The position numbers and the translations under genes were made by a program. Shown piece by piece: positions 23,524-26,926 of a stretch of 64,000 nucleotides of DNA; the stretch's first letter is position 1; every line of letters starts with the position of its first letter. Location of the stretch: NCBI GenBank assembly GCA_027488865.1, contig JAIYAU010000034.1, forward strand, positions 186,001 through 250,000, written 5' to 3'. Below the pieces are notes generated by a model. The model searched no databases and was not told the DNA's origin. It saw only the letters and a program-made list of their open reading frames with translations. The stretch comes from Cytophagaceae bacterium. Its GTDB lineage: Bacteria > Bacteroidota > Bacteroidia > Cytophagales > UBA9547.

Positions 23524-24432
23524 ATGAAAACCATATTACTTTTTAGTGTTTTATCTTTATTCCTTTTTTCATGTGCTATACACACAGGCACGCTTACCAC
23601 AAGTGCCTTACCCAATTGCACATACGAAGGTATCGCGAAAGTAAAAGTAGGTACAAGCCATTTTTTAGGAATTGGTGGAAACACAAGAGGAGCTTTAATT
23701 TTGGATGCCAAAGAAATGCTTTTATCAAATAATCCTCCCAAAAGTGGTATTACACTCACCAACTATACTGTTGATATCAAAAGAACCTTTTTAATTTTGA
23801 CTACCAGCAATGTTATTACCGTTTCCGCTGAAAAATATCGTTGCCCTACTAACTATGTTACTACTACCGACAAACAATCATTTAATACCCCTTCCAAAGA
23901 AGATTCAGTAAAAAGCAAAATCCTTCCTACACTTTTAGAAACAGAAAATATTCAAAAGTCGTCAGAGCCAACCGAAGTACAAAAAGAACCATCACCTGTA
24001 ATTGAACCAAAAAAAGAGGAGGTTACCCAACAAGTAAATATCAAAGCGGTAGACCCAGCACGTTCAGAACTGTTAGAAGTAAACGACCCAATCTATTTTG
24101 TAATGGATAATGTGGTTATCAAAGGGGTTATTATTTCAAAATCAACCAAATCTTGCACTATTATTTATAAAGATCAAAACAATAAAGACCTTTCAAAGAA
24201 CATATCTAAAGATAATATCTATCAAAGTTTGAAAATAGATAAAACCGAAATTACTTATGGTTACCAAATAGGGAGCAGAATTAAAATTGAGGTTTTTGCA
24301 AAACAAAGCAACACAAATGTGATAAGAGAAGGCTCCATTATAGGAATAGGCAAAAATGGGGTAATTATGGAATATCCAAAAGAAGACGGCTCCATAAGGC
24401 AATTACAGGTTGGGTATAATAAAATTTTATAA
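23524..24432 (+). CDS. Predicted lipoprotein of unknown function
   Basis: A 302-residue protein with a lipoprotein signal (MKTILLFSVLSLFLFSC, Cys17). The first 100 residues resemble a small beta domain, containing GTSHFLGIGGNTRGALILDAK. A Pro/Glu/Lys-rich linker (residues about 130-170) follows, then a C-terminal domain with two SH3-like strand repeats (LLEVNDPIYFVMDNVVIKG, GSRIKIEVFAKQSN). The GIGGNTRGALILDA element recalls DUF6567-type Bacteroidota lipoproteins, by memory only. It converges on the TonB receptor gene and overlaps its end by 6 bp. The role is unknown. Confidence 0.75.
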   Translation: MKTILLFSVLSLFLFSCAIHTGTLTTSALPNCTYEGIAKVKVGTSHFLGIGGNTRGALILDAKEMLLSNNPPKSGITLTNYTVDIKRTFLILTTSNVITVSAEKYRCPTNYVTTTDKQSFNTPSKEDSVKSKILPTLLETENIQKSSEPTEVQKEPSPVIEPKKEEVTQQVNIKAVDPARSELLEVNDPIYFVMDNVVIKGVIISKSTKSCTIIYKDQNNKDLSKNISKDNIYQSLKIDKTEITYGYQIGSRIKIEVFAKQSNTNVIREGSIIGIGKNGVIMEYPKEDGSIRQLQVGYNKIL

Positions 24433-26847
24433 TTTTATGCCAAGACTAAGGTAGCAGGTTCGAGGGTCAGACGGTATTATGCCTGGCCCGGGATATCCAT
24501 CGGCACGTCTTGTAAAATATCTTTTGTCAGCGATGTTATTGATACCTGTGCCTAATAAAAATCTTTTGTATTCGTACTTAACCGATAAATCTAAAACATT
24601 ATAACTAGGTATCTCGCCTACAATGGCACTAGGTGATGGGTTAATGCTGTTAGTCGCATCGGTAAATTGGCTGGCAATATGTGAATATTGTAGCGTGGTA
24701 GCAAAAGTTCCTCTTTTATAGGTTATTCCACTTCTGTGTGTAAATGCTGGCACAAGCTCTACCTTATTGTTTGCATAAATTCTATTAAATGCCTCATTGT
24801 CACTAGACAAATAAGTAGCATTGTTGATTGCATTATTAAGAAAAATGGTAAAACTTGTTTTGCTAACTCCTTTTATCAATTTCCATATATCTATCTCAAT
24901 AATAGACTCCACACCTTGCGTTTGTGAATTCCCAATATTTGTTCTAAATCTTTGTCCGTTAGGTAAAAAAGTTTCTCCAATACGCCCTTTATACCTTAAA
25001 TAATACAAATTGATATCAAAATAAATTAGCTCTTTCCAATTACCACGTAAGCCTAGGTCGGCGTTATATCCAAACTCATCTTTCAATAAACTATCAACCT
25101 CAATATTGGGGTTAGAAACTATAACATCACTGAAAGTGGCTGCCCTGTAGTTGGTCGTATAGTTTCCATACAGCTCTATTGATTCATTAACTTTGAATGA
25201 ACTACCTGTCCCAAACAACAAAAAGCTGCGTACGTTACTACTGTTTCTATAAATTTTATTATCAACTAACACGTTATCACTCCTATCTTTCACAATATTT
25301 CTTGTATATCCTTTAGAAAACGTTTGAATGTTCTCTAGTCTTATTCCTGGGGTAACTGTAATTCTTGGGCCTATCTGAAAAATATTTTCAAAGAATAATG
25401 CATAGTTTTGGCTAGGCAAAATATAGTCAAATTTTTCTACGTTTGAAGGGTTTACAAAATAGAAGTCCGGCCCTGCAAGAGCGTTACCATCACCTTGTTG
25501 TCTAGTAGTTCGTCCTTTATAAATACGCTGACCTACCACAAAAGCCATTTTTTGATTTGCTAATTTATATCGGTGAAGTAAGCGCAGTTCCGATCCAAAA
25601 TTAAGATAATCATCGTTTTGATATACCCTGTTTCCGGGTAGGTCAATCACATTGATTTTTTCTTGTGAACCAATTGCTTTACGAGAGGCAATAAGGACAA
25701 AATTACGCCAATTTAATTGGGTGTTTGTGTTGATTTTATAGTCCAAGTTTAAAGAAAACAGGTTCCAATTAACGGCAAACCAATTTCTAGCCCTTACTGA
25801 TTGTTGAGGATTTTTTAAAAAGTTTGCATCGGTAAGTCCTCCTGGCTGCTGCGCAAGATAGTTCATATAGGTGTATTCTATATTTGCACTAAGCCTTTTA
25901 TTTAGTTTATACTCAACTTGACCATATGCTACCTTTGCATTAAATTTACTATTAGGCCTCCAGCAATCACCTTGTTTGTATTGAAGGAAGGCATAATAAT
26001 TAATTTTTCCAAGAGTGCCACCTACACTGTTGAATGTATTTAGAAATCCATAGCTGCCACCAGTGTTTCTTGTAGTAAATTCTATCTTTTTGTTAGTTGG
26101 ACCTTTTTTAAATACAAAATTGATCATACCCCCTAGTTGTGTGCCATATTGGAGTGAGGCAGCACCTCGCACAAACTCTATTTTTTCTATAGCTTCAAGT
26201 GGCGGAGTGTAATAGCTTTCGGGGTATCCGAGGGCATCTGCACTAATATCGTAACCATTTTGCCTTACATTAAAGTTAGCAGTTCTGTTTGGACTCAATC
26301 CTCTTGCGCCAATACCTAGTTGAATACCAGCACAATCGTTTTCCCATATGTTAAGCCCTGAAATTTTTGAAAACGCTTGGCGGGCGTTGTTACTAGCAGT
26401 ATTAAAGGTAAGTTGATCAAGTGATATTACTTCAGTTTTTTTACCATCATAGATGGAAGTGCCCTCAATAGAAGATAATCGACCAATACCAAAATCATTT
26501 TCCTTTTTTTTGGTGATTACCACCGTTTCTAGTTCGGTTTTAGCTGGTTTTAGGTCAAAATATACCTTAATGTCCTCATTAGAAACTATTACCTTCTTTT
26601 TTTGAATAACATGACCTTGTGCAAAAGCAATAATATTGTACTCACCAGGGAGTATGTTGGTAAGGCAATAGTTACCATTAGAATCTGCCAAGGTGACCCA
26701 AGTTGTTTTCTCAAGTGAAATCTGAAAATCTTTGGTGTCCCCATCTTCACAACCTACTTTACCACAAATACTTACCTGTGCTATTGCGCACGAAGCAACT
26801 AATAACAACATCCCTAAAATTTTGTATTTCTTCAGATTGTTTCTCAT
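24427..26847 (-). CDS. TonB-dependent outer-membrane receptor, probably for iron
   Basis: About 806 residues from the ATG at 26847; a Met four codons further upstream (26859) lies in the -7 box and is less likely. After a signal peptide (ILGMLLLVASCAIAQ) comes a carboxypeptidase-regulatory-like domain (to about 105), a plug domain with GARGLSPNRTANFNVRQNG and the PPLEAIEKIEFVRGAASLQYG motif (about 150-245), and a 22-strand barrel ending YLSLGIKL. The arrangement is that of FecA/ferric-siderophore receptors. A Fur/Irr-type palindrome overlaps the promoter, which supports iron regulation. No ferric ABC transporter or TonB/ExbB genes are adjacent, so the substrate is not fixed. The gene's end overlaps the convergent lipoprotein gene by 6 bp. 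Confidence 0.9.
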   Translation of the reverse strand: MRNNLKKYKILGMLLLVASCAIAQVSICGKVGCEDGDTKDFQISLEKTTWVTLADSNGNYCLTNILPGEYNIIAFAQGHVIQKKKVIVSNEDIKVYFDLKPAKTELETVVITKKKENDFGIGRLSSIEGTSIYDGKKTEVISLDQLTFNTASNNARQAFSKISGLNIWENDCAGIQLGIGARGLSPNRTANFNVRQNGYDISADALGYPESYYTPPLEAIEKIEFVRGAASLQYGTQLGGMINFVFKKGPTNKKIEFTTRNTGGSYGFLNTFNSVGGTLGKINYYAFLQYKQGDCWRPNSKFNAKVAYGQVEYKLNKRLSANIEYTYMNYLAQQPGGLTDANFLKNPQQSVRARNWFAVNWNLFSLNLDYKINTNTQLNWRNFVLIASRKAIGSQEKINVIDLPGNRVYQNDDYLNFGSELRLLHRYKLANQKMAFVVGQRIYKGRTTRQQGDGNALAGPDFYFVNPSNVEKFDYILPSQNYALFFENIFQIGPRITVTPGIRLENIQTFSKGYTRNIVKDRSDNVLVDNKIYRNSSNVRSFLLFGTGSSFKVNESIELYGNYTTNYRAATFSDVIVSNPNIEVDSLLKDEFGYNADLGLRGNWKELIYFDINLYYLRYKGRIGETFLPNGQRFRTNIGNSQTQGVESIIEIDIWKLIKGVSKTSFTIFLNNAINNATYLSSDNEAFNRIYANNKVELVPAFTHRSGITYKRGTFATTLQYSHIASQFTDATNSINPSPSAIVGEIPSYNVLDLSVKYEYKRFLLGTGINNIADKRYFTRRADGYPGPGIIPSDPRTCYLSLGIKL

Positions 26848-26856
26848 TTGGGTGTG

Positions 26857-26877
26857 CAAATTTAGAATTATTCTAAA
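26857..26877 (-). promoter_or_regulatory. -7 box overlapped by an iron-regulator-type palindrome
   Basis: The minus strand has TAAATTTG (26857-26864), a perfect TAnnTTTG. Sharing four bases with it, a perfect 7-3-7 palindrome runs at 26861-26877 (TTTAGAA-TTA-TTCTAAA). This matches the form of the Irr/Fur-family iron control element known from alphaproteobacteria (TTTAGAA-N3-TTCTAAA, from memory). A second palindrome, GCTTAG-TT-CTAAGC, lies at 26913-26926. Repressor binding here would block the TonB receptor promoter. Confidence 0.6.
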
Positions 26878-26926
26878 GAACTAAAAAAGAAACTTTAGTT
26901 TTTGTAAATGTAGCTTAGTTCTAAGC

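What the first reader, a model, noticed from the sequence alone, without database searches (positions are those of the whole stretch)
26857..26877. Iron-regulator palindrome overlapping a TonB receptor promoter
A perfect TTTAGAA-N3-TTCTAAA palindrome shares four bases with a consensus -7 box in front of a FecA-like receptor. The form matches the Irr/Fur iron control element of alphaproteobacteria, which would be striking if used in a Bacteroidota. It also moves the gene start to 26847.
Basis: partly seen in the sequence, partly recalled or inferred. Interest (0 to 1): 0.6.

Follow-up and report, generated by a model that had tools for sequence, protein, structure and literature searches.

The report
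Iron-control site before a TonB receptor

Summary
TTTAGAATTATTCTAAA lies at 26861-26877 and shares four bases with a TAnnTTTG promoter box in front of the receptor gene, whose start is best placed at ATG 26847. The form is rare: about 0.2 copies of TTTAGAA-N3-TTCTAAA are expected in the 4.33 Mb genome and two are found. In a genome-wide scan with a matrix made without this genome's sites, this is the best site. Four of the five best sites precede iron-uptake genes. The motif recurs before the orthologous receptor, or the lipoprotein-imelysin-HTTM-receptor operon, across Bacteroidota and some neighbouring phyla. Here that operon is split in two, and both halves keep a site.

It is an iron-type element, but not a borrowed alphaproteobacterial Irr site: ATTTAGAATTATTCTAAAT is the published Fur box of the Bacteroidota member Riemerella anatipestifer (18 of 19 bases match), and the genome's only Fur-family protein is an ordinary Fur, not Irr. 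So it is a new instance of a known kind.

One thing is open: which protein reads the box. One relative with no detectable Fur keeps the boxes, and published Riemerella data show the iron response surviving fur deletion. A second regulator cannot be excluded.

The parts
26861..26877 (.). 17-bp perfect palindrome TTTAGAATTATTCTAAA (core of the Fur box, 7-1-7 core TTAGAAT-T-ATTCTAA)
26860..26878 (.). 19-bp Fur-box match ATTTAGAATTATTCTAAAG, 18 of 19 identical to the R. anatipestifer consensus ATTTAGAATTATTCTAAAT; best match in the whole genome to a matrix built without own-genome sites
26857..26864 (-). putative Bacteroidota -7 promoter box TAAATTTG (TAnnTTTG); shares TAAA with the palindrome
   Evidence: inferred, transcription start not mapped
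26845..26847 (-). proposed ATG start codon of the receptor gene
   Evidence: signal peptide and position downstream of the -7 box; inferred
24427..26847 (-). TonB-dependent receptor, 806 aa, CarboxypepD_reg-like N-terminus, plug and barrel; closest solved relative E. coli FecA

Best explanation
The palindrome is an iron-responsive operator, the Bacteroidota form of the Fur box. Inferred mechanism: when iron is plentiful, a Fe(II)-loaded dimer of the genome's single Fur (contig C3) binds the TTAGAAT-N-ATTCTAA core, which covers the start of the -7 box (TAAATTTG), so the housekeeping sigma factor cannot engage and the receptor is not made. When iron is short, Fur leaves, the promoter opens, and an mRNA with a very short leader (about 5-10 nt) is made from ATG 26847. 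The same operator stands before the lipoprotein-imelysin-HTTM genes at C5:152048-155810, which in most relatives share an operon with the receptor, so the split halves should respond together. Shown by computation: the site, its rarity, its conservation at this operon, its link to iron genes, and the presence of one Fur.
For: Sequence identity to the published R. anatipestifer Fur box, whose Fur was reported to bind promoters including a Fe3+-dicitrate receptor with ATTTAGAATTATCCTAAAT and hmuR with ATTTAAAATTATTCTAAAT (PMC5609570). In that species the TonB receptor, HTTM ('vitamin K-dependent gamma-carboxylase') and imelysin genes rise 2.1-3.1-fold in low iron. Genome-wide matrix scan: rank 1 is this site; ranks 3-5 are a siderophore-type TonB receptor, the imelysin operon and an AraC gene beside that receptor. 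Of 30 TonB receptors only this one and the siderophore-type one have a strong site (24.1 and 23.3 bits; next 10.3). Conservation: 14 of 17 transcription-unit promoters chosen without reference to a site carry a significant match to the Riemerella consensus (dinucleotide shuffles, p<0.05). In named genomes 35 of 75 operons score 15 of 18 or better against 16 of 440 other upstream regions (Fisher p 2e-21). The own imelysin operon shows box, TTTG, TACATTTG -7, second box, ATG. One Fur gene in the genome, with the metal- and zinc-binding residues invariant or nearly so in 23 relatives.
Against: No binding or expression data for this organism. Relative G018 (one contig, 98% complete) has no detectable Fur yet has boxes before feoAB, a multiheme cytochrome gene and the imelysin operon. 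In R. anatipestifer the iron response survives fur deletion (hmuR 7.9-fold in wild type, 8.4-fold in the mutant; imelysin 3.1 and 2.9), with only 1.4- to 2.6-fold derepression in high iron for the iron-uptake genes; and that paper's abstract prints a different, E. coli-type box. In most relatives the boxes flank the promoter (about -33 and at the transcription start), so direct overlap with the -7 box is not the usual arrangement.
Confidence: 0.72

Rival explanations
1. The box is a genuine iron operator, but its main reader is not Fur: another metal regulator (DtxR/MntR family, or one not yet recognised) binds it, alone or in competition with Fur.
For: A relative with no detectable Fur keeps the boxes at feoAB, the imelysin operon and a cytochrome gene; the iron response persists in the R. 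anatipestifer fur mutant. The own genome has one MntR/DtxR-type protein with a FeoA-like domain.
Against: R. anatipestifer Fur was reported to bind box-bearing promoters. Relatives G004 and G027 have boxes but no DtxR-family match, and G017 only marginal ones. The own MntR-like gene sits beside an ABC metal-transporter solute-binding gene, and none of 30 DtxR-family loci carries a box.
Confidence: 0.2
2. It is a PerR-like operator: the Fur-family protein senses peroxide as well as, or instead of, iron.
For: The core fits the form TTAnAATnATTnTAA recalled for PerR boxes (from memory). The protein also matches PerR models and PerR structures at lower rank.
Against: Best sequence matches are to Campylobacter and other Fur proteins. 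The regulon found is iron uptake and iron-rich proteins, with no peroxide-defence gene among the best sites.
Confidence: 0.05
3. It is an alphaproteobacterial-type Irr/ICE element, acquired or convergent, read by an Irr-like protein.
Against: The genome's only Fur-family protein reaches 35.6 bits with the Irr model against a cut-off of 170, and has the CxxC pairs of Fur. The motif is old and general at this operon in Bacteroidota.
Confidence: 0.02
4. It is a chance AT-rich palindrome without function.
For: Copies with up to two mismatches are no commoner than in the control.
Against: Exact copies exceed expectation (3 against 0.14), top sites cluster at iron genes, and the site is conserved before orthologues.
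Confidence: 0.02

Closest known systems
Fur box of Riemerella anatipestifer (ATTTAGAATTATTCTAAAT; PMC5609570)
   Same: 18 of 19 bases, within 100 bp of the start codon, before a Fe3+-dicitrate-type TonB receptor; the same imelysin-HTTM-receptor gene set is iron-regulated there
   Different: Different lineage; the operon is split here; binding and iron response not tested here
[quoted passage not shown]
   Same: Similar letters and palindrome form; also read by a Fur-superfamily protein
   Different: No Irr in this genome; Irr represses when iron is low (PMC3413700), a different logic
PerR box of Firmicutes (TTAnAATnATTnTAA, from memory)
   Same: 7-1-7 palindrome of the same frame
   Different: Peroxide regulon; the target genes here are iron genes
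E. coli Fur box
   Same: 7-1-7 palindrome with AAT-N-ATT centre
   Different: Outer half-site is TTAG/CTAA instead of TGAT/ATCA; P. gingivalis Fur did not bind the E. coli box (PMC6613475)

Membership tests
Bacteroidota Fur box (R. anatipestifer type) | 19-bp sequence ATTTAGAATTATTCTAAAT | tested here: met
   18 of 19 identical
Bacteroidota Fur box (R. anatipestifer type) | Lies within about 100 bp of the start codon of an iron gene | tested here: met
   The 19-mer's near edge is 12 nt from the ATG of a FecA-like receptor; the actual substrate is unknown
Bacteroidota Fur box (R. anatipestifer type) | Conserved before orthologous genes | tested here: met
   14 of 17 unselected promoters p<0.05; 35 of 75 named operons against 16 of 440 controls
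Bacteroidota Fur box (R. anatipestifer type) | A Fur protein is encoded in the genome | tested here: met
   One FUR protein, 94.8 bits, cut-off 23.1; but relative G018 has boxes without detectable Fur
Bacteroidota Fur box (R. anatipestifer type) | Bound by Fur with metal; gene repressed by iron | not testable with these tools
   Needs gel shift, footprint and RNA measurement
Irr/ICE element of alphaproteobacteria | Sequence TTTAGAA-N3-TTCTAAA | tested here: met
   Letters match; the consensus itself is taken from the finding, as no held paper gave it
Irr/ICE element of alphaproteobacteria | An Irr protein in the genome | tested here: not met
   Sole Fur-family protein: Irr model 35.6 bits, cut-off 170; IrrA model 34.1 bits, cut-off 150
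FecA ferric-citrate receptor | FecA model NF041676 over cut-off | tested here: not met
   106 bits, cut-off 1100; full-length PDB match to FecA E 9.4e-21
FecA ferric-citrate receptor | N-terminal signalling (STN) domain | tested here: not met
   Pfam finds CarboxypepD_reg-like instead
TAnnTTTG (-7) promoter of Bacteroidota | Exact TAnnTTTG close upstream of the gene, type used in this genome | tested here: met
   TAAATTTG; 16 of 39 starts on the coding strand against 6 and 4 in controls; transcription start not mapped

The most novel reading that the evidence does not exclude
The TTTAGA-N5-TCTAAA operator is an old iron element, present in Bacteroidota and in a few records of Balneolota/Rhodothermota and Chlorobiota type, that is not read by Fur alone: a second, still unnamed iron regulator reads it. 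That would explain why a relative without detectable Fur keeps it and why R. anatipestifer keeps its iron response after fur deletion.
Probability: 0.2. Interest if true: 0.68.

Novelty: new member of a known kind. Interest (0 to 1): 0.36.

Why it matters
It gives a clean, testable operator for iron control in a phylum whose Fur regulons are little mapped. It shows the operator is conserved at one gene set across the phylum and beyond, often in a two-box layout around the -33/-7 promoter. It also exposes an open question, what reads the box when Fur is absent, that a gel shift or a mutant could settle.

Tried and rejected
A single-sequence scan of genome contigs found no relatives; an alignment query then gave 80 named loci. 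Counting all copies with up to two mismatches gave no enrichment. The spacing-spectrum search TTTAGA-N{0,11}-TCTAAA was not informative: totals lay below the reversed control and own-genome places were not listed. Considered and rejected: Irr, chance palindrome, a terminator hairpin (the site overlaps a promoter box, and its relatives sit at promoters), and the MerR-like MliR regulator of Bizionia (suggested there to be an activator; no palindrome given). One training sequence of model R1 was typed with a wrong first base (ATTTAGAATTAGTCTAAAT for CTTTAGAATTAGTCTAAAT); this affects an outer position only.

Full report
What is there. The palindrome TTTAGAATTATTCTAAA is at 26861-26877 exactly as reported. 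The gene it serves runs leftward: an 806-residue TonB-dependent receptor with CarboxypepD_reg-like, plug and barrel domains, full-length similar to E. coli FecA in the PDB (E 9e-21) but far under the curated FecA cut-off. On the minus strand TAAATTTG, an exact TAnnTTTG box, overlaps the palindrome by four bases and ends 9 nt before ATG 26847. TAnnTTTG occurs before 16 of 39 gene starts of the window on the coding strand, against 6 on the other strand and 4 in reversed form. The start at 26847 is therefore preferable to the mechanical TTG at 26859, which lies inside the -7 box. No transcription start has been mapped.

Is it more than chance. For TTTAGAA-N3-TTCTAAA a first-order model expects 0.23 copies in 4.33 Mb; two are found. 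The inner TTAGAATNATTCTAA is expected 0.14 times and found three times. Looser matching shows no excess, so the claim rests on near-perfect copies and on their positions.

A sequence-only model was built from sites of relatives and Riemerella, with no site of this genome. The best site in the genome is the one in the window. Second is a perfect copy at C13:57742, just behind an efflux-type gene and 138 bp ahead of nuoA; the likely nuo promoter is about 120 bp further on, so its function is doubtful. Third to fifth are a siderophore-type TonB receptor on C44, the lipoprotein-imelysin-HTTM operon on C5, and an AraC-type gene next to that receptor. Among all 30 TonB receptors found, only the window's and the siderophore-type one carry a strong site (24.1 and 23.3 bits; the next has 10.3). 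The C44 sites are not orthologous to anything in the training set as far as examined, so they are independent support.

Conservation. Orthologues of the receptor at 37-52% identity are found in most relatives. In many the receptor is the last gene of an operon: lipoprotein, imelysin, HTTM/VKGC protein, receptor. In this genome the first three genes lie about 57 kb from the receptor on the same contig, and both halves have a box. Against the published Riemerella consensus, 14 of 17 transcription-unit promoters not chosen for having a site are significant at p<0.05 by dinucleotide shuffling. In 75 operons from named genomes 35 reach 15 of 18, against 16 of 440 other upstream regions. That comparison takes the best of several upstream regions per operon, which inflates it by at most a few fold. 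The named set is mainly Bacteroidota (Pontibacter, Mucilaginibacter, Zobellia, Bizionia, Aquimarina and others), with a few records of Fodinibius, Rhodothermaceae and Ca. Thermochlorobacteriaceae.

Promoter layout. Many promoters have two boxes, one at the -33 region and one directly after the -7 TAnnTTTG, over the expected transcription start; the downstream TAnnTTTG lies 46-47 bases from the start of the upstream box in 25 cases. The own imelysin operon has this layout: box at 151964, TACATTTG, second box at 152026, ATG at 152048. The window's receptor has a single box lying on the -7 itself. All arrangements fit steric repression, which is inference.

What it is. The motif is not an alphaproteobacterial loan. 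The Riemerella anatipestifer study PMC5609570 gives the Fur box as ATTTAGAATTATTCTAAAT and reports Fur binding to promoters including a Fe3+-dicitrate receptor. That paper is the only one in the held library with these letters. The genome has one Fur-family protein, closest in the PDB to Campylobacter Fur (the organism is from general knowledge of those entries), with the histidine, glutamate and cysteine ligands invariant or nearly so among 23 relatives. The Irr models score far under their cut-offs. The simplest account is the ordinary Bacteroidota Fur box.

What is not settled. Relative G018 (single contig, 98% complete) has no Fur-family match by two searches, yet boxes precede feoAB, a multiheme cytochrome gene and its imelysin operon. 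In the Riemerella data the iron response survives fur deletion: hmuR 7.9-fold in wild type and 8.4-fold in the mutant, imelysin 3.1 and 2.9. The abstract of that paper also prints a different box from its text. So either Fur shares the box with another regulator, or these data have other causes. The DtxR/MntR family is not an obvious substitute: G004 and G027 have boxes without it and none of 30 such loci carries a box. This is the part worth pursuing.

Verdict.

Noticed in passing
G000:C5:151964-152048 (L076): Promoter of the lipoprotein-imelysin-HTTM operon has two boxes flanking a -33/-7 promoter (AATTAGAATTATTCTAAAT and ATTTTTAATTAATCTAAAT); in relatives this operon continues into the receptor gene that here lies about 57 kb away.
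   Followed up: yes
relative G018 (L095, L203, L216): Genome without any detectable Fur-family protein keeps the boxes before the imelysin operon, a multiheme cytochrome c gene and feoAB.
   Followed up: partly
PMC5609570 Table 4: In R. anatipestifer the iron response of hmuR and the imelysin operon is as large in the fur mutant as in wild type; the abstract and text of the paper print different Fur boxes.
   Followed up: partly
L191 (G000:C57:5810-5827), L213 (G007), L203 (G018): A weaker box lies 119-189 bp before a multiheme cytochrome c gene (possibly alternative complex III) in three genomes, hinting that iron-rich respiratory proteins belong to the regulon.
   Followed up: partly
L201 (G007), L211 (G004), L210 (G020): Boxes directly before sufB and an ApbC/Mrp-type Fe-S carrier gene in relatives.
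   Followed up: partly
G000:C13:57742-57760 (L186): Perfect 19-bp copy just after the stop of an efflux-adaptor gene, 138 bp before nuoA but about 120 bp upstream of the likely nuo -7 box; function unclear.
   Followed up: partly
L097 (G000:C21, TonB receptor upstream): TTTAGACTAATCTAAA, the same half-sites with a 4-base spacer, about 25 bp before another TonB receptor; possibly a different regulator's site.
   Followed up: no
window 26913-26926: Perfect inverted repeat GCTTAGTTCTAAGC about 35 bp upstream of the Fur box in the same intergenic region.
   Followed up: no
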